Source of the DNA: Cytophagales bacterium
GTDB taxonomy: Bacteria; Bacteroidota; Bacteroidia; Cytophagales; Bernardetiaceae
Reading direction: 5' to 3'
Assembly (NCBI GenBank): GCA_013299045.1
Contig: JAAFJX010000010.1
Coordinates: forward strand, 1 to 64,000
DNA length: 64,000 nt
A program made the position numbers and the translations under genes. Below are positions 6,708-58,553 of the stretch, one piece after another. Every line of letters starts with the position of its first letter. The first letter of the stretch is position 1. The notes under the pieces were generated by a model that saw nothing but the letters and a program-made list of their open reading frames with translations, was not told the DNA's origin and made no database searches.

Positions 6708-8129
6708 ATGAAAGCTAAACAACATACCATCAAACAAGCCGTAACGGTATCCGGAGTGGGTTTGCATACCGGCGTTTTTGCCAACATGACCTTCCTGCCT
6801 GCAAAGCCCAACAGCGGCATCTGCTTTCAGCGTGTTGATTTGCCCGACCAACCTATTGTGGAAGTGGACGTGGACAATGTTGTTGATACATCACGCGGCA
6901 CTACCATAGCCAAAGGTGAAGCGCGTGTTAATACCGTAGAACATACGCTGGCTGCGCTTGTGGGCTTAGAGATTGACAATGCCATCATTCAAATTGACGG
7001 CCCCGAACCCCCTATTATGGACGGCAGTTCGCAAATGTTCGTAAAAGCGCTAACGGCTGCTGGCCTTGAAGACCAAAATGTTCCACGTAACTTTTTTGAT
7101 ATTACATCTGGTGTATTTTATTCGGACGCTTCCAACGGCATTGAACTGGCCGCTCTGCCTCTAAACGACTATCGTTTGACGGTTATGGTGGATTACAATT
7201 CTGCTGTACTTGGTAGCCAATATGCCACACTGAACGACCTAGAGCAGTTTGCTTCTGAAATATCTTCCTGCCGTACTTTCTGTTTTTTGCACGAGTTAGA
7301 AATGCTGCACAAAAATAACCTCATCAAGGGCGGCGACTTGAACAATGCCATCGTGATTGTGGACAGGGCCGTTAGCGAAGAGGAAATGGAACGCCTCGCC
7401 AAAATTTTTAATAAAGAAAAAATTGCCGTCAAGAAAGAGGGCATTCTCAATAACGTAGAATTGCGTTTTCCGAATGAACCTGCTCGCCATAAATTATTGG
7501 ACTTGATAGGCGACTTGGCGCTTGTAGGCCGCCCCATCAAAGGACAAATACTGGCCGCAAGACCAGGCCATGCTGCCAATGTGGCTTTTGCCAAAAAACT
7601 CAAAAAAGTGATGCTCAAAGCCAAGTCTGGCGCACCGCATTACGACCCTACCTTGCCACCATTAATGGATACGAACCAAATCGCAAATATTTTGCCTCAC
7701 CGTTACCCTTTCTTGTTGGTAGATAAAATATTGCATCTGGACGAAAACAACATCATTGGCCTCAAGAACGTAACGCTTAATGAGCCTTTCTTTATGGGGC
7801 ACTTCCCCAACAATCCTGTAATGCCAGGGGTGCTACAAGTAGAGGCTATGGCGCAAACAGGAGGTGTATTTTTGCTCAGCACAGTCAGCGACCCCGAAAA
7901 TTATTGGGTGTACTTTTTGGCGATTGAAGATTGTCGTTTCAAAAAAATGGTGCTGCCTGGCGACACCCTCCTCATACGTTGTGAACTGCAAGGTGGCGTA
8001 AAGCGCGGCATTGCCAAGATGAAAGGACAAGCTTTTGTGGGCGGAACTCTCGTCTGCGAGGCCACACTCACTGCAACCATGATGCGCAAAGATAGAATTG
8101 CAAAGCGCCCTGAGTCCGGACAGGCTTAA
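6708..8129 (+). CDS. lpxC/fabZ: Bifunctional LpxC deacetylase / FabZ dehydratase fusion
   Basis: 473 aa. Residues 1-~300 are LpxC, the zinc-dependent UDP-3-O-acyl-GlcNAc deacetylase that commits flux to lipid A: HTIKQAVTVSGVGLHTG, the zinc-ligand region VEHTLAAL, and FCFLHELEML. From ~325 the second half is FabZ, the 3-hydroxyacyl-ACP dehydratase: LPHRYPFLLVDKI with its catalytic His, then GHFPNNPVMPGVLQVEAMAQ with the catalytic acidic residue in the helix. The fusion is characteristic of Bacteroidota and some related phyla and couples lipid A with fatty-acid elongation. lpxA, often found next in Bacteroidota, is not here; an endonuclease V-like gene follows instead. Confidence 0.96.
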   Translation: MKAKQHTIKQAVTVSGVGLHTGVFANMTFLPAKPNSGICFQRVDLPDQPIVEVDVDNVVDTSRGTTIAKGEARVNTVEHTLAALVGLEIDNAIIQIDGPEPPIMDGSSQMFVKALTAAGLEDQNVPRNFFDITSGVFYSDASNGIELAALPLNDYRLTVMVDYNSAVLGSQYATLNDLEQFASEISSCRTFCFLHELEMLHKNNLIKGGDLNNAIVIVDRAVSEEEMERLAKIFNKEKIAVKKEGILNNVELRFPNEPARHKLLDLIGDLALVGRPIKGQILAARPGHAANVAFAKKLKKVMLKAKSGAPHYDPTLPPLMDTNQIANILPHRYPFLLVDKILHLDENNIIGLKNVTLNEPFFMGHFPNNPVMPGVLQVEAMAQTGGVFLLSTVSDPENYWVYFLAIEDCRFKKMVLPGDTLLIRCELQGGVKRGIAKMKGQAFVGGTLVCEATLTATMMRKDRIAKRPESGQA

Positions 8130-8144
8130 TGCAACACATTGCTC

Positions 8145-8198
8145 AAAAATAGGTTGCCTGTTAAGTTCATTAAAAGATAAAGTAAGTTGCCTATTTTT
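8145..8198 (+). terminator. Possible terminator after lpxC/fabZ
   Basis: AAAAATAGG at 8145-8153 pairs with CCTATTTTT at 8190-8198. The loop is long (about 36 bases), so the call is weak. Confidence 0.3.
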
Positions 8199-8218
8199 AG
8201 TTTTAAGTCTTTGTCAAT

Positions 8219-8731
8219 ATGATTCTTGCTTTTGATACCTATTATTTTGAGCAAAAAGCCAAAACAGTTTGTATTTCCTTTGAAAACTGGTCTTCAGCGA
8301 ATATTCTGGAAACATGGTCGGAAACACTCTATGAAGTAAGCAATTATGAGTCGGGTAACTTTTATAAACGAGAGTTGCCCTGCATCGTGAGCCTGTTCTC
8401 AAAAGTGCATTTCAGCAATATTGAAGCCATTGTGATAGATGGATTTGTGTTTCTGGACGACAACCGCAAACTGGGGCTAGGAGGGCATTTATTTGAACAC
8501 CTAAACAATAAAATTCCTATTATTGGAGTTGCTAAAACGAATTTTGCCGTCATTCACCACGATAAAAAAGCCTTGCTTAGAGGTCAGAGCATAAGGCCAC
8601 TTTACGTTACAGCCATTGGCATAAACCTTGACCAAGCAACAGAGCACATCCGAACCATGCACGGAAAAAACCGCCTCCCTACTTTGCTCAAGCAACTAGA
8701 CAGTTTGACAAAAAGCAGACTTTTACCTTAG
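8219..8731 (+). CDS. Endonuclease V-like protein, N-terminally shortened
   Basis: 170 aa; classical endonuclease V (Nfi) is about 220 aa and cuts DNA or RNA next to deoxyinosine/inosine. Family landmarks are visible: the first acidic residue in ILAFDTYYF (position ~6), the GLLAFRE-like YKRELPCIVSLF with its Glu (~59), the second catalytic Asp in AIVIDGFVFL (~79), LGLGGHLFEHL in place of the usual HPR..GLA.H, PIIGVAKTNF, and the C-terminal PLYVTAIGINLDQA. About 30 N-terminal residues of the usual protein and the HPR triplet are missing. The catalytic acids remain, so activity is possible but the specificity may differ. It sits behind the lipid A genes. Confidence 0.75.
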   Translation: MILAFDTYYFEQKAKTVCISFENWSSANILETWSETLYEVSNYESGNFYKRELPCIVSLFSKVHFSNIEAIVIDGFVFLDDNRKLGLGGHLFEHLNNKIPIIGVAKTNFAVIHHDKKALLRGQSIRPLYVTAIGINLDQATEHIRTMHGKNRLPTLLKQLDSLTKSRLLP

Positions 8732-51830: not shown

Positions 51831-52151
51831 GCTAAAACAACAGAGAGTGAAATCTTATGAGCAGCTATATTTTGCAAAAGAGTTCATCAAAACTGGCCTT
51901 TGGCGAGGCTTGATTTTTTTTGCTATGCCCTACGGTCGGAACTTTCAGCTCGCGCTTTAGTTCTGCATTAAGGCAAAAAGTGGAGAAGAGAAGTCTATCA
52001 AAGGCCGTCAAGGTGTTCCTAAAGCAGATAAATCAATTGATGTGCTTGTTCTTATGCAGTCTTTTTAAGGGGCGACTAAACTATTAAAAAAAAATTTACT
52101 TTTTCTATTTCTTTTACCATACTTTTTGGGTCTATGTATTAGGCAAGGTTT

Positions 52152-52194
52152 TGTCTTTGCGGACTGAAACGCTCTTGTTTCGGCTTTTTCTTTT
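52152..52194 (+). promoter_or_regulatory. Array copy 1: promoter remnant and 5' leader hairpin
   Basis: TGTCTTTG (52152-52159) stands where the other copies have TAnnTTTG, so the -7 box has lost its key A. The hairpin CTGAAAC-GCTCTT-GTTTCGG (52164-52183), followed by CTTTTTCTTTT, is intact. Confidence 0.6.
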
Positions 52195-52223
52195 AAATTT
52201 TAACCCAAAAACAAACAAAACTC

Positions 52224-52814
52224 ATGTTAAAAACCATGAAACTTTTGCTGGCGGCGGCCTTTCTGCTCGCTGGCCTCAGCTTGGCTGGCTGCAAAAACTG
52301 CAAGGAGGATAATAATAGCGGAACTGGTAGCGTTACGCCACCAAGCAAAATTGATAAGGTCTTCCATTTATGCCTTGTGGATAAAAAAACAGGGAAATCT
52401 TTAGTAGGCGAGGGCGCAGACCAGATTCCATTGTCAAACATTGACATCGTGGGGGCAAACTACAGAGACGTTGTCCAATATTACGATTTACTTGTAAAGG
52501 ACATGAAAACCAGCATAGACCCACGTACAGGGCACATTGTTATGGGGCCAATCAAATGGGGACATGATGTACAACAATCTTTTTTTGTTCGTGTTCTGGA
52601 TAGCCCCAAGCGTGTACTAGGTGAGATTCCTCCTGGCTATAAACTTTTGTGGATAGTTATGAGCAAGGAGGCCGAAATACTTGATGAGTGCAACAGCAAA
52701 ATTTGGGTGGATTATTCGCATTACAAAAAAGGTGTTTCAACCCAGGGTGTGTTGGTATCCAAATACAAAGGTAATGGCCTCACCGACACCCTCCGCTTAG
52801 AAGTAGAACGCTAA
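52224..52814 (+). CDS. Tandem-array lipoprotein, copy 1
   Basis: 196 aa. The signal peptide begins MLKTMK and ends in lipobox LAGC (Cys23), followed by the array-wide KNCKE. A Gly/Ser/Pro spacer leads to LVDKKTGKSLVGEGADQIPL, the family core (DKKTG..L.G...DQIP). A variable centre follows, then DECNSKIWVDYSHYKKG and the conserved C-terminus GLTDTLRLEVER. It differs from the others in ending LRLEVER rather than LRIEVER. Closest to copy 5 at both ends (TGSVTPPSKIDKVF; DYSHYKKGVSTQ). No named family recognised; the domain looks like a small beta sandwich. A terminator-like stem follows at 52888. Confidence 0.85.
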   Translation: MLKTMKLLLAAAFLLAGLSLAGCKNCKEDNNSGTGSVTPPSKIDKVFHLCLVDKKTGKSLVGEGADQIPLSNIDIVGANYRDVVQYYDLLVKDMKTSIDPRTGHIVMGPIKWGHDVQQSFFVRVLDSPKRVLGEIPPGYKLLWIVMSKEAEILDECNSKIWVDYSHYKKGVSTQGVLVSKYKGNGLTDTLRLEVER

Positions 52815-52887
52815 AATTATTCCGTAAAAATTGCACTCATCAAAGAATTTTTAACTCAAAAAATGGTTTTAGGTTCTTTAAACTAAG

Positions 52888-52918
52888 CCTTGGTATAACT
52901 ATTTCAAGGATTTTTTAT
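52888..52918 (+). terminator. Terminator between array copies 1 and 2
   Basis: CCTTG (52888-52892) pairs with CAAGG (52905-52909), then ATTTTTTATTTTT. The same stem recurs after copy 3 but not after copies 2 and 4. Confidence 0.55.
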
Positions 52919-52970
52919 TTTTCTGTTTCTTTTGTCATGTTTTTTTTGTCTACACATATAAGTACGGTCT

Positions 52971-53013
52971 TAACTTTGCAAACCGAAACGCTCTTGTTTC
53001 GGCTTTTTCTTTT
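52971..53013 (+). promoter_or_regulatory. Array copy 2: promoter and 5' leader hairpin
   Basis: TAACTTTG (52971-52978), then four bases, then CCGAAAC-GCTCTT-GTTTCGG (52983-53002) and a T-rich tract. The hairpin starts about where transcription should begin. Confidence 0.65.
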
Positions 53014-53042
53014 AAATTTTAACCCAAAAACAAACAAAACTC

Positions 53043-53594
53043 ATGTTAAAAACCATGAAACTTTCGCTGGCGGCTGCCTTTCTGCTCGCTGGCCTCAGCT
53101 TGGCTGGCTGCAAAAACTGCAAGGAAGAATCTTCAATGTCTTCGCCCAATGCCATGACACCTGTAATCTCTGACCTTTCTTCTTACTATGTGTATTTTGT
53201 AGATAAGAAAACAGGGAGACCACTTATTGGCGATGGTGAGGGGCAAATTCCTCTTGGGGCAGTCAAAATAAAAAGCCAAACAGTGAAAGTCCAACCCATG
53301 ACGGACATTCCTGACCAGACCCTCTTCGGCCCGTTTAAGTGGTTTTTTACGGAAGGTCATGTAAAGCATGGTATTTCTTTTACCGAAGGCAGCAGCAGTG
53401 ATGTCGTGATTTATCATATGACTATACATGGCGAGCCAAGAACAGAGATTATAGATGAGTGCAATAGCATAACTTGGGTAGATTACGGGCATTATTACTT
53501 TGAAAAACCTGGAGTAACTAAAGCTGGTGTTTTGCAGCAAACTTTCAGAGGCGATGGAATGACCGACACCCTCCGCATAGAAGTAGAACGCTAA
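53043..53594 (+). CDS. Tandem-array lipoprotein, copy 2
   Basis: 183 aa. Same signal peptide with one change (KLSLAAAF for KLLLAAAF). The spacer after KNCKE is SSMSSPNAMTP, shared with copy 3 only. Core: YFVDKKTGRPLIGDGEGQIPLGAV. The variable centre is shorter than in copy 1 (VKVQPMTDIPDQTLFGPFKWFFTEG). The end, DECNSITWVDYGHYYFEKPG then TFRGDGMTDTLRIEVER, again pairs with copy 3. Probably anchored at the outer membrane. Own promoter and leader hairpin; the downstream spacer is the type without the CCTTG stem. Confidence 0.85.
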   Translation: MLKTMKLSLAAAFLLAGLSLAGCKNCKEESSMSSPNAMTPVISDLSSYYVYFVDKKTGRPLIGDGEGQIPLGAVKIKSQTVKVQPMTDIPDQTLFGPFKWFFTEGHVKHGISFTEGSSSDVVIYHMTIHGEPRTEIIDECNSITWVDYGHYYFEKPGVTKAGVLQQTFRGDGMTDTLRIEVER

Positions 53595-53749
53595 AATTAT
53601 TCCTTGAAAATTTGCACTCATCAAAAAATTTTTAACTCAAAAAATGGTTTTAGATGCTCTAAATAAAAATATCATGTAGTTATTAAAAAAAAAATTCATT
53701 TTTATACTTTTTTTTACTTTATTTTTTGGCAATTTGTTAGGCAAGGGCT

Positions 53750-53792
53750 TAACTTTGCAAACTGAACCACTCTTGTTTCGGCTTTTTCTTTT
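53750..53792 (+). promoter_or_regulatory. Array copy 3: promoter and weakened leader hairpin
   Basis: TAACTTTG (53750-53757). The stem's 5' arm reads CTGAACC (53762-53768) against GTTTCGG (53775-53781), so one A-T pair is lost relative to the other copies. Confidence 0.6.
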
Positions 53793-53821
53793 AAATTTTA
53801 ACCCAAAAACAAACAAAACTC

Positions 53822-54364
53822 ATGTTAAAAACCATGAAACTTTTGCTGGCGGCGGCCTTTCTGCTCGCTGGCCTCAGCTTGGCTGGCTGCAAAAACTGCA
53901 AGGAAGAATCTTCAATGTCTTCGCCCAATGCCATGACACCCTCTTCGGATGTGTATTCACATTATGTTTATTTTGTGAATCAAAAAACAGGGAGACCTCT
54001 CATAGGCGATGGCAAAGACCAGATTCCTTTAGGAGCAGTAGAAATGGATGTACCTAATCAAAAGGCAGTTCTGGATTCCTTGACAGGGAATCTTATCTTT
54101 GGGCTTTGTCAATGGCCTTCCAATCGCGGGTGCTATCAAAATATATTCTTTCAGGACAAGCCAGGCAGTTCGCGTACTATCCACGTTGTACAAATTGATG
54201 GAGTGAAAAAATCAGAAATTCTTGATGAGTGCAATAGCAGAACTTGGGTAGAGTACAGCTATTACGACTTTCCTAATCCCGGCTCAGGTGAGCGCGGCAC
54301 TCTGAAGACCATCTTCAGAGGCGATGGAATGACCGACACCCTCCGCATAGAAGTAGAACGCTAA
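53822..54364 (+). CDS. Tandem-array lipoprotein, copy 3
   Basis: 180 aa, the shortest copy. The 5' ~120 bases are essentially identical to copy 2 through SSMSSPNAMTP, after which the sequences diverge. Core: YFVNQKTGRPLIGDGKDQIPLGAV, with Asn-Gln replacing Asp-Lys. Variable centre: LDSLTGNLIFGLCQWPSNRG, containing two extra cysteines (LCQW and GCYQ). End: DECNSRTWVEYSYYDF then IFRGDGMTDTLRIEVER. A CCTTG...CAAGG stem with T-run follows at 54439. Confidence 0.85.
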   Translation: MLKTMKLLLAAAFLLAGLSLAGCKNCKEESSMSSPNAMTPSSDVYSHYVYFVNQKTGRPLIGDGKDQIPLGAVEMDVPNQKAVLDSLTGNLIFGLCQWPSNRGCYQNIFFQDKPGSSRTIHVVQIDGVKKSEILDECNSRTWVEYSYYDFPNPGSGERGTLKTIFRGDGMTDTLRIEVER

Positions 54365-54438
54365 AATTATTCCTTGAAAATTTGCACTCATCAAAGAATT
54401 TTTAACTCAAAAAATAGTTTTGGATTCTTTAAACTAAG

Positions 54439-54470
54439 CCTTGATGTAACTATTTCAAGGACTTTTTATT
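54439..54470 (+). terminator. Terminator between array copies 3 and 4
   Basis: CCTTG (54439-54443) pairs with CAAGG (54456-54460), then ACTTTTTATTTTT. Confidence 0.55.
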
Positions 54471-54520
54471 TTTCTATTTCTTTTACCATACTTTTTGGGT
54501 CTATGTATTAAGCAAGGTCT

Positions 54521-54563
54521 TAACTTTGCAAACTGAAACGCTCTTGTTTCGGCTTTTTCTTTT
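54521..54563 (+). promoter_or_regulatory. Array copy 4: promoter and 5' leader hairpin
   Basis: TTG at 54495-54497, a 23-base spacer, TAACTTTG (54521-54528) and the CTGAAAC-GCTCTT-GTTTCGG hairpin (54533-54552). Confidence 0.65.
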
Positions 54564-54592
54564 AAATTTTAACCCAAAAACAAACAAAATTC

Positions 54593-55180
54593 ATGTTAAA
54601 AACCATGAAACTTTTGCTGGCGGCGGCCTTTCTGCTCGCTGGCCTCAGCTTGGCTGGCTGCAAAAACTGCAAGGAGGAGAATAACTCTTCGGCGAATAGC
54701 GATAGCCCACCGAACGAAAAATCAAAAAAATTCTGTGTTTATTTTGTGGATAAAAAAACAGGAAAGTCTCTTATTGGCAATGACAAAGATCAAATTCCAT
54801 TCGAGAATCTTGATATCACACTTGATGGCTATCACAAAACGCCCAGAGATTATTATGGTGCAGTGCGAAATCCTGCTTCTAGTATGGATACTCGAACGGG
54901 TCGTCTTATCATCGGCCCCATAGAATGGGGCTGGGAAGCCAAGGAGGAGTTTGGTATTCGTTTTCTAGTATCTCCAAAGCGACTTCTTGATGAAATCCCT
55001 CCATGTACAGACAGCCTACTGTTTGAGGCATTGAAGCGTGCTGAAATCATTGATGATTGCAACAGCAATATTTGGGTGGAATACGCGCACTTCAAAATAG
55101 GCGCTAAACCAATGGCCTTGCAGCAAAAATACAAAGGTAATGGCCTCACCGACACCCTCCGCATAGAAGTAGAACGCTAA
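54593..55180 (+). CDS. Tandem-array lipoprotein, copy 4
   Basis: 195 aa. Standard array signal peptide, but a spacer of its own (NNSSANSDSPPNEKSKKF). Core: YFVDKKTGKSLIGNDKDQIPFENLDIT. The variable centre (YHKTPRDYYGAVRNPASSMD then IIGPIEWGWEAKEEFGIRFL) follows the layout of copies 1 and 5, including an FLVSPKRLLDEIPP segment that parallels VLDSPKRVLGEIPP of copy 1. End: DDCNSNIWVEYAHFKIG then KYKGNGLTDTLRIEVER. It shares the C-terminal YKGNGLTDTLR block with copies 1 and 5 rather than FRGDGMTDTLR of copies 2 and 3. Confidence 0.85.
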   Translation: MLKTMKLLLAAAFLLAGLSLAGCKNCKEENNSSANSDSPPNEKSKKFCVYFVDKKTGKSLIGNDKDQIPFENLDITLDGYHKTPRDYYGAVRNPASSMDTRTGRLIIGPIEWGWEAKEEFGIRFLVSPKRLLDEIPPCTDSLLFEALKRAEIIDDCNSNIWVEYAHFKIGAKPMALQQKYKGNGLTDTLRIEVER

Positions 55181-55334
55181 AATTATTCCTTAAAAACTGC
55201 ACTCATCAAAGAATTTTTAACTCAAAAAATAGCTTGAGGCTCTCTAAATAAAGACTTCATGTAACTATTAAAAAAAATTTACTTTTTCTATTTCTTTTAC
55301 CATACTTTTTGGGTCTGTATATTAAGCAAGGTCT

Positions 55335-55377
55335 TATCTTTGCAAACCGAAACGCTCTTGTTTCGGCTTTTTCTTTT
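55335..55377 (+). promoter_or_regulatory. Array copy 5: promoter and 5' leader hairpin
   Basis: TATCTTTG (55335-55342) and CCGAAAC-GCTCTT-GTTTCGG (55347-55366). This promoter probably also drives the metalloprotease gene. Confidence 0.65.
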
Positions 55378-55406
55378 AAATTTTAACCCAAAAACAAACA
55401 AAACTC

Positions 55407-55994
55407 ATGTTAAAAACCATGAAACTTTTGCTGGCGGCGGCCTTTCTGCTCGCTGGCCTCAGCTTGGCTGGCTGCAAAAACTGCAAGGAGGATAATAATG
55501 GCGGAACTGGTAGCGTTACGCCACCAAGCAAAATTGATAAGGTTTTTTATCTCTACCTTGTAGATAAAAAAACAAGCAAACCTCTGATAGGTGAGAACCC
55601 AGACCAAATTTCCCCTAAAAGACTAGATTTTATTCGCAATGGCTATGGTATAGGTGAATATCATGAGTATTTGGTCAAGGATTTAGAAAAAAACATCGAT
55701 TTGCGCACAGGCCACACCATTTTTGGGCCTTTTACGTGGGGAGCTGTACAGGAGATTATATATATCCGTGTATTAGATGAACCTATTGAGCGCAAAGCAG
55801 GACAAATTCCCTACGGTTACACGCTTTTATGGGTTGCTGCTCGCAAGGAGGCCGAAATCATTGATGAGTGCAACAGCAAAATTTGGGTAGATTATTCGCA
55901 TTACAAAAAAGGTGTTTCAACTCAAAGTGTGTTGGTATCCAAATACAAAGGTAATGGCCTCACCGACACCCTCCGCATTGAAGTAGAACGCTAA
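55407..55994 (+). CDS. Tandem-array lipoprotein, copy 5
   Basis: 195 aa. Spacer GGTGSVTPPSKIDKVF is nearly identical to copy 1. Core: YLVDKKTSKPLIGENPDQISPKRL; the TG of the core is TS and IPL is ISP. Variable centre: GIGEYHEYLVKDLEKNIDLRTGHTIFGPFTWG. The end, DECNSKIWVDYSHYKKGVSTQ then GLTDTLRIEVER, is again close to copy 1. Only 15 bases separate its stop from the ATG of the metalloprotease gene, with no leader hairpin between, so the two should be co-transcribed. Confidence 0.85.
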   Translation: MLKTMKLLLAAAFLLAGLSLAGCKNCKEDNNGGTGSVTPPSKIDKVFYLYLVDKKTSKPLIGENPDQISPKRLDFIRNGYGIGEYHEYLVKDLEKNIDLRTGHTIFGPFTWGAVQEIIYIRVLDEPIERKAGQIPYGYTLLWVAARKEAEIIDECNSKIWVDYSHYKKGVSTQSVLVSKYKGNGLTDTLRIEVER

Positions 55995-56009
55995 AACAAG
56001 GAAAAAGTC

Positions 56010-58485
56010 ATGAAAAATATATCAAAAATAGCATTCTCTTTACTGCTCCTTTTTGTGGGCAGCTTTGCTTATGCGCAACAAAATCCTGTTAAACGCTGTG
56101 GTGTTGGCAGTAATTACTCGGATACTGTTATTCTCAAGCAACTGCCTTGGTTCGGCAACAATGCCTGGCTCAAATCCTACACGGACAGCATCGTTAGGGC
56201 ACGGTCTTTGCTCTATCTACCCCCCCCCCCACGAGCGTGGAGCGAGTGGTAGCAGCGCCAGCGCGCTAAGGCTAGCCACGGTTGGGGGCAAGGTGAATAC
56301 CCTCTATCAAATACCAGTCATGGCCACGATTTATCACAGAGATGATGGTACAGGTGGTATTTCTGATGCAATGGCTGAATATCATATAAATGGTGCGAAT
56401 GAGTATTTCAAAAAAAATGGTGTCAGTATTTTTTTATACCTCATTTGCAGCCCTATTCACTACAATTGGACAGCTAGAAGCGAGCCTAGTTACGCTAATA
56501 CCGATGATATTATGGAAGATGCTGTGGAGGCATATCCCAATGTTATGAATATTAGTTTTGTAACTGCTTCAACAGATTTTGGTGGAGTAGCAGAGCTTCC
56601 ACATGGTTGGGGGGGATATAAAAGGAGATATTCTGCAATCGTTTGCACAAATGGAGGCGTTGCTTATACGGATCTTACCATCACACATGAAATAGGCCAT
56701 GCTTTGGGCTTGTTCCACACGCATAATTCTACTTGGCCAGACGAAGAGGTGAATGCGACGGTTAATATCTGTAAGCAAGAACCTGTCAGCCGGACAGCCC
56801 ATACGCCCTGGTATTGTGGCTCAAGCTATTTTGGCAAAGCTTGTGAACGCAATGGCGACTTGCTCTGCGACACCCACGCTGACCCTGGTATGGAAGATAC
56901 TGGGATATCAGACCCACTGGATTCCGTCAATGTCCCGCGAGACTGTATCTACAATTACACTGGCACCAATGTAGATAGAATACGAGATAAACTGCACGGT
57001 ACTAGATGGGACTCGCCTGATGGCTATAACGCCTACTACAACATCATGTCCTATGCTGAGGCTATCTGCAGACGGCAGTTTACACCTGACCAAACAGCGG
57101 TGATGTACTACTTCACGGAGCGTTACAAAAAAACGATTTTAGGCATACCTGTCCTGAATCCTGTAACCTTCTATGAGAACAAGGGCTTGGACGTTTACGA
57201 AAATGACAACTATTTTCAGAATGCAAAATTCTATGATATTCTGCACCCACGCAGGCAGCATAGAACCTTTCACAGCGTCATCAATCCTGTAAGCAATCAG
57301 CCACAGTTTTGCGATACAGACTGGGTTCGTTTTAAGATTGAGAGTTCTCGCAGAGTCATTATACGCACCTCGGAAGTACCAGGTAAGCCCAAGCCTAATA
57401 CGATTTTGAGCCTTTTCGGCACAGCAGACATAAGTGTTGTACCTGCTGTTATATCAGTGGTCATACACACAGACGACAACCCCAGCTCTAACTTCTCTAA
57501 GCTAGATGTCATTTTGCCCGCAGGCGATTATCTGGTGCGTGTGCAAAACACAGAAACCCTTGCGGATATGAATTATTTTCTGACACTTAGTCTGGACAGA
57601 GAGTTTGACGACTTCGGTATAGGTTTTTCGGGGTTGGGTGGCGTGGACTTACTAGAAGAAGAAACAGATAATGTTGTGGCTTGCGTAGGCGACCAGTTTA
57701 CGGCCAGTGGTGTGCCAGAAGGCTGTGAGGCGGTGTGGAGCTCAGAAACGCCAGGGCTGTATATCAGCAGTTCTGGCCTTGTGCTGCCTGCTACAAGCAC
57801 CTACATCAATACCATCAATGGCGGAAATGGTTTTGAGGCACAAATTAGGCTAGAAGTTTTTTGCGACGGCCAAACATTGCCTTCCACGACCATCAGTTTT
57901 AGCTTGTGGGTAGGCCCACTCGTGAAGCCTACCATAGAGATAGTCCACCCAGTAACTTCTACCACCGGACATCTCTGCCTCAATTCTGGTAACTACCTCC
58001 AAGCAACAACATCTGGTGTTTATCCCGATGAATACGAATGGAATGTTGTTGGTATGGGTGGGGGCAGCAGCGGCACTTACTTTACCGACAATACGCTCAC
58101 GCTTCCAGAGTTTAGTGCCTCAACCGCTTGGTATCACATCAAGGTACGTGCTCGCAACCGCTGCGGTTGGTCGCCATGGTCTTCTCTCATGCAAGTTTCG
58201 GTTACTATGTGCAGCGAAGAATTCCTGCCTGGCGGTGGCCGCATGGCTTCCCTCGCGCCCAACCCTGCCCAAAACCAAGTAACAGTAACGGTCAGGAATG
58301 AAATACCAATAGCGCAAGGTGGCCTGGATATTCGCATCAAGGATATGTATGGCCTAGAAAAAATAGCCGTGCAGAGCCAAACCCGCGAAACGAGCTTGGA
58401 TATCAGCACTTTGTCCGTCGGTATTTACATCGTTTATGTGCAGAACGGCTCAAAAATAGAGTATTTGCGCTTGAACGTGGAATAA
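56010..58485 (+). pseudogene. M43-like (pappalysin/cytophagalysin type) T9SS metalloprotease, frameshifted at a poly-C tract
   Basis: The signal peptide (ISKIAFSLLLLFVGSFAYAQ) and the first ~70 residues are in one frame from 56010, which stops at 56252. The rest is in the +1 frame to 58485. The frames meet at C11 (56220-56230); ten C residues would join them into a protein of about 825 aa. The downstream frame has the zinc motif HEIGHALGLFHTH, conserved cysteines, the Met-turn NIMSYA, a PPC-like beta domain, a Cys-containing Ig-like region and a T9SS type A sorting domain (SLAPNPAQNQVTVTV to the end KIEYLRLNVE). All catalytic parts are intact, so this is either a phase-OFF allele or a homopolymer error rather than old decay. 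Confidence 0.85.
56220..56230 (+). repeat. C11 homopolymer inside the metalloprotease gene
   Basis: Eleven consecutive C residues directly at the junction of the two reading frames. It is by far the longest C or G run noticed in the window. Confidence 0.9.
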
Positions 58486-58500
58486 AAAGTTGATTGCTTC

Positions 58501-58553
58501 TTCTCAAAAACCCTTTACAACGCTTCAAAACTTTGTAAAGGGTTTTTTGAGAA
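58501..58553. terminator. Strong terminator after the metalloprotease gene
   Basis: TTCTCAAAAACCCTTTACAA pairs with TTGTAAAGGGTTTTTTGAGAA across a ~12-base loop (one bulge). The symmetry lets it serve both this gene and the convergent DUF5686 gene. Confidence 0.88.

What the first reader, a model, noticed from the sequence alone, without database searches (positions are those of the whole stretch)
52142..56000. Five-gene tandem array of lipoproteins with constant ends and variable centres
Copies at 52224, 53043, 53822, 54593 and 55407 share an almost identical signal peptide and lipobox, a DKKTG..LIG...DQIP core, a DECNS..WV.Y motif and a TDTLRIEVER end, while about 70 central residues differ strongly. 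The outer blocks also have subfamilies that do not agree with position: the N-terminal spacer and C-terminal block group copy 1 with 5 and 2 with 3. This is the pattern of surface or decoy proteins that diversify by recombination between conserved flanks. I recognise no named family. It could be a repertoire of surface antigens, binding proteins, or inhibitors matched to different partners.
Basis: partly seen in the sequence, partly recalled or inferred. Interest (0 to 1): 0.8.

Follow-up and report, generated by a model that had tools for sequence, protein, structure and literature searches.

The report
Inhibitor-like lipoprotein array beside switchable protease
Five related surface lipoproteins sit next to a secreted protein-cutting enzyme whose gene carries a slippery run of C's likely to switch it on and off; the lipoproteins are probably inhibitors that protect the cell from such enzymes, in a genus-wide family of protease-plus-partner gene sets not described before in this form.

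Summary
The five-copy array is real. It is not a free-standing antigen repertoire: it is the front of an operon-like unit whose last gene, 16 nt after copy 5, encodes a T9SS-exported metzincin metalloprotease. The same layout (shared promoter/leader, lipoprotein, then sorting-tail protease or its remnant) recurs at about ten loci in this Cytophagales genome and at least nine more in a congener, with two unrelated lipoprotein families paired with two protease families. One of those protease families is homologous to mirolysin of Tannerella forsythia. That enzyme belongs to the KLIKK set, whose upstream lipoproteins (potempins) are their specific inhibitors. I therefore judge the array to be potempin-like inhibitor or immunity lipoproteins (not proven). 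Fourteen of the protease genes carry a poly-C or poly-G tract (8-15 nt) in the signal or pro-peptide; 12 are out of frame, including the window's (11 C), which looks like phase variation of the protease with the lipoprotein constitutive. The 'constant ends' are homogenised by recombination: dS is about 0 over the signal peptide and saturated in the centre. The centre shows purifying, not diversifying, selection in the one pair close enough to test. Lipoproteins mostly stay intact where proteases are deleted or broken.

The parts
51883..52080 (.). dispersed repeat (about 150-200 bp) that borders the array upstream; its 3' part is also fused to the leaders of loci C48a and C59
   Evidence: blastn: 82-100% identical copies in L033, L032, L095, L115, L097, L038, L030, L094
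52079..52223 (+). 5' module of copy 1: promoter (-7-like TGTCTTTG at 52152), leader hairpin 52164-52183, untranslated leader
52224..52814 (+). lipoprotein copy 1 (196 aa)
52834..53042 (+). 5' module of copy 2 (TAACTTTG at 52971, hairpin 52983-53002)
53043..53594 (+). lipoprotein copy 2 (183 aa)
53615..53821 (+). 5' module of copy 3
53822..54364 (+). lipoprotein copy 3 (180 aa)
54385..54592 (+). 5' module of copy 4
54593..55180 (+). lipoprotein copy 4 (195 aa); AF2 model all-beta, pLDDT about 76-93 per 10-residue block from residue 41 on
55200..55406 (+). 5' module of copy 5
55407..55994 (+). lipoprotein copy 5 (195 aa)
56010..58485 (+). secreted metzincin metalloprotease: signal peptide and pro-segment with Cys-Gly (56010-56219), then catalytic and sorting domains read in the +1 frame (ORF 56053-58485)
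56220..56230 (+). poly-C tract of 11, putting the signal/pro-segment out of frame with the catalytic domain in this assembly
56686..56718 (+). zinc-binding motif HEIGHALGLFH (HExxHxxGxxH)
   Evidence: translation
58240..58550 (+). 3' shared module: T9SS type A sorting domain (Por_Secre_tail, TIGR04183) plus 3' flank, found at 12 places in the genome

Best explanation
The array is a set of outer-membrane-type lipoproteins that work as specific inhibitors (immunity proteins) of secreted metalloproteases, in the manner of the potempins of Tannerella forsythia. SHOWN: the lipoprotein genes lie directly upstream of a T9SS-sorted metzincin; this layout recurs genome-wide with two sequence-unrelated lipoprotein families, each tied to its own protease family; many of the proteases carry long poly-C or poly-G tracts at a conserved spot and most are out of frame; the lipoproteins are mostly intact even where the protease is broken or gone; promoter+leader+signal peptide and sorting tail are homogenised between loci. 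INFERRED: (1) the lipoprotein binds and blocks the active protease at the cell surface or periplasm; (2) tract slippage switches the protease on and off in subpopulations while each lipoprotein stays on from its own promoter, so protection precedes attack; (3) extra lipoproteins in the array are orphan or spare inhibitors against other protease variants, built by tandem duplication of the [leader + lipoprotein] unit; (4) the divergent central part is the protease-facing, specificity-bearing part.
For: Adjacency: window copy 5 is 16 nt from the protease; same order at C72, C16, C48a, C48b, C59, C39, C53, C70 and congener loci. Family pairing: type A lipoproteins with the 'PWFGNNAWL' reprolysin-like metzincins, type B with M43 pappalysin-like ones; the two lipoprotein profiles align only over the signal peptide. 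Homology to a protease with a known upstream lipoprotein: the type B protease's best solved relative is mirolysin, E 9e-29; every KLIKK protease is preceded by a small lipoprotein ORF with no mutual similarity (PMC4404884), these are inhibitors of the downstream protease (PMC7296668), and a C-terminal 14-mer of mirolysin's upstream lipoprotein was found in its active-site cleft (PMC6949598). T9SS: SprA present, sorting domain above cut-off. Tracts: 14 protease genes with 8-15 nt C/G tracts at homologous positions, 12 out of frame; about 1.5 C/G runs of 10 or more expected in the genome by base composition, 9 found, 6 in these loci. Lipoproteins kept, proteases lost: G001 C36 keeps the lipoprotein and only the last protease codons; G001 C1 has the catalytic domain deleted; C16, C70 and G001 C25a keep lipoproteins before protease stubs. 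Purifying selection on the lipoprotein: dN/dS about 0.22 for the C36/C1 pair.
Against: No inhibition was or could be tested here. No sequence or fold match to a solved protease inhibitor: the type A model has no confident PDB match and type B is only weakly lipocalin-like. At G001 C47 the protease is intact and in frame while its lipoprotein ORF is split, the reverse of what protection predicts (it may be a MAG error). The proteases have a Cys-Gly pro-segment that could already give latency, so an inhibitor is not strictly needed. Adjacency alone would also fit a chaperone or export partner. The C36/C1 divergence may predate the protease losses, so the dN/dS need not reflect retention without a protease. 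Homopolymer lengths in draft assemblies can be wrong; no reads were available.
Confidence: 0.6

Rival explanations
1. The lipoproteins are export or maturation partners (chaperones, surface anchors or activation cofactors) of the downstream T9SS protease rather than inhibitors.
For: Strict adjacency and family-specific pairing fit any dedicated partner; outer-membrane-type lipoproteins assist other export systems (general knowledge).
Against: A partner needed only for export should decay with its protease, but lipoproteins stay open where the protease is a stub or gone; five different ones precede a single protease; the closest experimentally studied layout (T. forsythia pot-KLIKK) is inhibitory.
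Confidence: 0.17
2. A diversifying repertoire of surface antigens, decoys or receptors that happens to lie upstream of a protease.
For: Constant ends and divergent centres, with silent-site proof of recombination or conversion at the ends; multiple copies.
Against: No excess of replacement changes (dN/dS about 0.22 in the one testable pair); the centre groups the copies the same way as the ends; nearly every related lipoprotein locus with sequence held downstream is tied to a protease or its remnant; each array copy has its own promoter, so there is no single expression site.
Confidence: 0.12
3. A decaying multigene family: the poly-C/G tracts are neutral or assembly artefacts and the whole set consists of degenerating proteases with leftover lipoproteins.
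For: Only 2 of 14 tract genes are in frame; several proteases have further frameshifts or deletions; the draft assembly breaks inside these repeats.
Against: Runs of 10 or more C/G are rare in this genome and 6 of 9 sit in these genes at two conserved positions; independent presence in a second species' genome with lengths 8-15 in intact contexts; the window and C48b proteases have long undisturbed reading frames downstream; one protease is fully on (G001 C47).
Confidence: 0.11

Closest known systems
Potempin (pot) - KLIKK protease operons of Tannerella forsythia (PMC4404884, PMC7296668)
   Same: Small lipoprotein gene directly upstream of each secreted protease; proteases share a nearly identical C-terminal sorting domain while the rest differs; upstream lipoproteins mutually dissimilar; one KLIKK member (mirolysin) is homologous to the type B proteases here
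   Different: Sorting tail ends in LRLNVE/LRLVVE, not KLIKK; different bacterial order; up to five lipoproteins before one protease; the proteases carry poly-C/G tracts; shared promoter+leader+signal-peptide module moves between loci; no lipoprotein similarity to a solved structure found
Pappalysin (M43) metallopeptidases: mirolysin, ulilysin, cytophagalysin
   Same: Type B proteases match Peptidase_M43 well above cut-off and mirolysin/ulilysin over the catalytic domain; Cys-Gly pro-segment in most
   Different: The window's own protease is a different metzincin (Reprolysin_5 just above cut-off, no solved relative by sequence)
Polymorphic toxin-immunity systems with orphan immunity arrays (contact-dependent and T6SS effectors)
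   Same: Works like: constant delivery parts, variable cargo, linked immunity, extra orphan immunity genes, retention of immunity after loss of the effector
   Different: T9SS-sorted metalloproteases instead of injected toxins; no evidence that the target is another bacterium
Phase-variable contingency genes with poly-G/poly-C tracts (Neisseria, Helicobacter, Campylobacter)
   Same: Long homopolymer G/C tract in the 5' coding part, lengths differing between paralogues and mostly out of frame
   Different: Here the tract sits in secreted protease genes of Cytophagales, with the partner lipoprotein outside its control

Membership tests
Potempin / KLIKK protease pairs | Lipoprotein gene directly upstream of a secreted protease | tested here: met
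Potempin / KLIKK protease pairs | Proteases share a near-identical C-terminal T9SS sorting domain | tested here: met
   CTD at 76-100% DNA identity between most loci (67% at C39); sorting domain above cut-off
Potempin / KLIKK protease pairs | Sorting domain ends in Lys-Leu-Ile-Lys-Lys | tested here: not met
   ends in EYLRLNVE (window) or LRLVVE (congener)
Potempin / KLIKK protease pairs | Protease homologous to a KLIKK protease | tested here: inconclusive
   met for the type B proteases (mirolysin E 9e-29); the window's type A protease has no solved relative by sequence
Potempin / KLIKK protease pairs | Lipoprotein inhibits the protease encoded next to it | not testable with these tools
   needs biochemistry
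Potempin / KLIKK protease pairs | Lipoprotein fold resembles a solved potempin | tested here: inconclusive
   no confident PDB fold match for either family; potempin sequences or coordinates were not compared directly
Phase-variable contingency gene | Long homopolymer tract in the 5' coding region that sets the reading frame | tested here: met
   14 genes, tract 8-15 nt
Phase-variable contingency gene | Tract length varies within a population | not testable with these tools
   no reads or sister isolates; lengths differ between paralogues only
Polymorphic toxin-immunity system | Constant delivery module joined to divergent cargo with linked immunity | tested here: inconclusive
   constant 5' and 3' modules and linked lipoproteins shown; antibacterial action not shown
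Diversifying antigen array | Elevated replacement rate in the variable part | tested here: not met
   congener pair dN/dS 0.22; centre silent sites saturated in window pairs

The most novel reading that the evidence does not exclude
A phase-variable, recombining protease-inhibitor system exported by T9SS that behaves like a polymorphic toxin-immunity system: subpopulations switch single proteases on by poly-C/G slippage, all cells keep a stock of cognate and orphan inhibitor lipoproteins, and cargo is exchanged between genomic loci through identical 5' (promoter-leader-signal peptide) and 3' (sorting tail) modules, for competition with close relatives lacking the matching inhibitor.
Probability: 0.25. 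Interest if true: 0.85.

Novelty: new variant of a known kind. Interest (0 to 1): 0.62.

Why it matters
Protease-inhibitor lipoprotein pairs of this kind are described in the papers read here only for one oral pathogen. Finding an independent, much larger, phase-variable and recombining set in Cytophagales suggests that potempin-like protection is a general solution to the hazard of T9SS-exported proteases, and that such pairs can evolve like toxin-immunity repertoires with orphan protectors. It offers new candidate metalloprotease inhibitor scaffolds (one all-beta, one lipocalin-like) and a directly testable question: which array member blocks which protease.

Tried and rejected
Family libraries (Pfam, NCBIfam) and PDB sequence searches with single lipoproteins and with the A and B profiles: no meaningful match. 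Fold search of the type A model: only chance immunoglobulin matches, E at least 0.03 and TM about 0.2. Rfam scan of the region: one sub-threshold snoRNA match taken as chance. Shuffling of ends against centres: not seen, ends and centres group the copies alike. A dispersed repeat inside the protease at the C tract: rejected, that 60-mer occurs only in the two type A proteases. Wider search: the type A profile found nothing beyond two weak N-terminal hits in 394 other Bacteroidota genomes, and the type B protease found nothing at E 1e-40. Papers on poly-G phase variation in Bacteroidetes proteases: none found. The main potempin structure paper was not in the library, so potempin folds could not be compared.
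Full report
Observation. Five ORFs at the stated coordinates share constant ends and divergent centres. About 200 nt upstream of each ATG is also near-identical and holds a Bacteroidota-type promoter (TAnnTTTG with its T at -72 from the ATG and a TTG about 26 nt further upstream; copy 1 has the weaker TGTCTTTG), a short hairpin at the start of the transcript, and an untranslated leader. Each copy therefore looks separately transcribed. A sixth member is on contig C72 and its relatives occur in one congener.

Constant ends come from recombination, not only from constraint. Among codons that encode the same residue, copies 1 and 5 are silently identical in 81 of 86 end codons but 13 of 33 centre codons (Fisher p 6e-10). 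dS is 0 over residues 1-28 and saturated in the centre. The same leader plus signal peptide precedes unrelated lipoproteins: at C16 it is 96% identical in DNA and encodes almost the same signal peptide. The C-terminal TDTLRIEVER is both homogenised within the genome and constrained between species, since the congener has TDTLRIE with different codons. The centre is not hypervariable in the sense of positive selection: the only pair close enough to measure has dN/dS of about 0.22.

The partner gene. 16 nt after copy 5 starts a secreted metzincin (HEIGHALGLFH) with a T9SS type A sorting domain; the T9SS translocon protein SprA is encoded in the genome. The C72 copy is likewise followed by a paralogous protease. 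Tracing the shared leader (12 places), the shared sorting tail (12 places) and a second lipoprotein family uncovered a genome-wide set: C51 (window), C72, C16, C48a, C48b, C59, C39, C53 and C70, plus C65 at a contig end. In the congener (a Cytophagales MAG, RDZD01) it uncovered C36, C1, C33, C43, C28, C25 (two in tandem), C47 and C42, plus a doubtful one at C2. Type A lipoproteins go with type A proteases and type B lipoproteins with M43 pappalysin-like proteases. The A and B profiles align only in the signal peptide, and models suggest different folds: all-beta for A, weakly lipocalin-like for B.

Switching. In the window protease the signal/pro-segment and the catalytic domain are in different frames, separated by 11 C's; the C72 paralogue has 15 C's at the same spot, also out of frame. 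Type B proteases have a G tract inside the signal peptide instead. Over both genomes 14 protease genes (some of them remnants) carry tracts of 8-15 nt, and 12 are out of frame. Runs of 10 or more C/G number 9 in this genome, against about 1.5 expected from composition, and 6 of the 9 are in these loci. This is the signature of slippage-based phase variation. Population variation was not observed directly, and assembly error in individual tract lengths cannot be excluded.

Who is kept and who is lost. At G001 C36 the lipoprotein is intact and only the last codons of the protease remain; at G001 C1 the catalytic domain is deleted; at C16, C70 and G001 C25a only stubs of the protease follow intact lipoproteins. 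At G001 C25 two lipoproteins flank a protease stub, one route to arrays. The window array itself looks like duplication of [leader + lipoprotein] units, with no protease remains between copies. One locus (G001 C47) shows the opposite, an intact in-frame protease with a split lipoprotein ORF, and counts against the model.

Explanation. The layout matches the pot-KLIKK operons of T. [quoted passage not shown] The type B proteases are homologous to the KLIKK protease mirolysin (E 9e-29), and a C-terminal fragment of mirolysin's own upstream lipoprotein was found in its active-site cleft (PMC6949598). I infer that the array encodes potempin-like inhibitors: made constitutively from their own promoters, they protect the cell when a slippage event turns a protease on, and the extra copies are orphan or spare protectors. 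Inhibition is inferred, not shown. Strict membership fails on the KLIKK ending and is open on inhibition and fold, so I call it a system that works like pot-KLIKK rather than a member.

Novelty and limits. Known elements (lipoprotein inhibitor plus T9SS protease, poly-G phase variation, cassette homogenisation) are combined in a way I did not find described. The system is genus-restricted in the genomes searched.

Noticed in passing
window 52164-52183, 52983-53002, 53762-53781, 54533-54552, 55347-55366: Hairpin CYGAAAC-GCTCTT-GTTTCGG followed by a U-rich run at the predicted transcript start of each copy (weakened in copy 3); at C53 the sequence changes to CCAAAAC...GTTTTGG and still pairs, and some congener leaders have different GC-rich hairpins at the same place. 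Possibly a 5' stabiliser or attenuator.
   Followed up: partly
window 51883-52080; L095 2517-2660; L115 2202-2349; L097 791-888 and 4670-4805; L038 3079-3284: Dispersed repeat of about 150-200 bp scattered through the genome and bordering several of these loci; could be a MITE-like element.
   Followed up: partly
contig ends: C71 13538-13633 (L034), C36 1-95 (L035), C72 1-126 (L023): Three contigs break in the same sequence (CGCGCACAGAGTGGCC... plus the first part of the leader module), so the assembly may hide further copies or rearrangements.
   Followed up: partly
L120 2757-3243 (G001 C47): Split lipoprotein ORF before an intact in-frame protease, the only such case; assembly error or real exception.
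   Followed up: no
G000 C4:61625 (11 G/C), C7:14180 (10 C), C51:130271 (10 C): The other long C/G tracts of the genome; the C4 tract lies inside an ORF (L095 3214-4014, minus strand) that might also be phase variable.
   Followed up: no
L036 7456-7640 (C53): Leader plus signal peptide of a lost lipoprotein, truncated by a stop, upstream of a different lipoprotein (7708-8265) and an intact protease without a C/G tract.
   Followed up: partly
L141 (G000 C69:79619-79717): Relic of the C-terminal end of a type A lipoprotein on another contig, detected by the type A profile.
   Followed up: no
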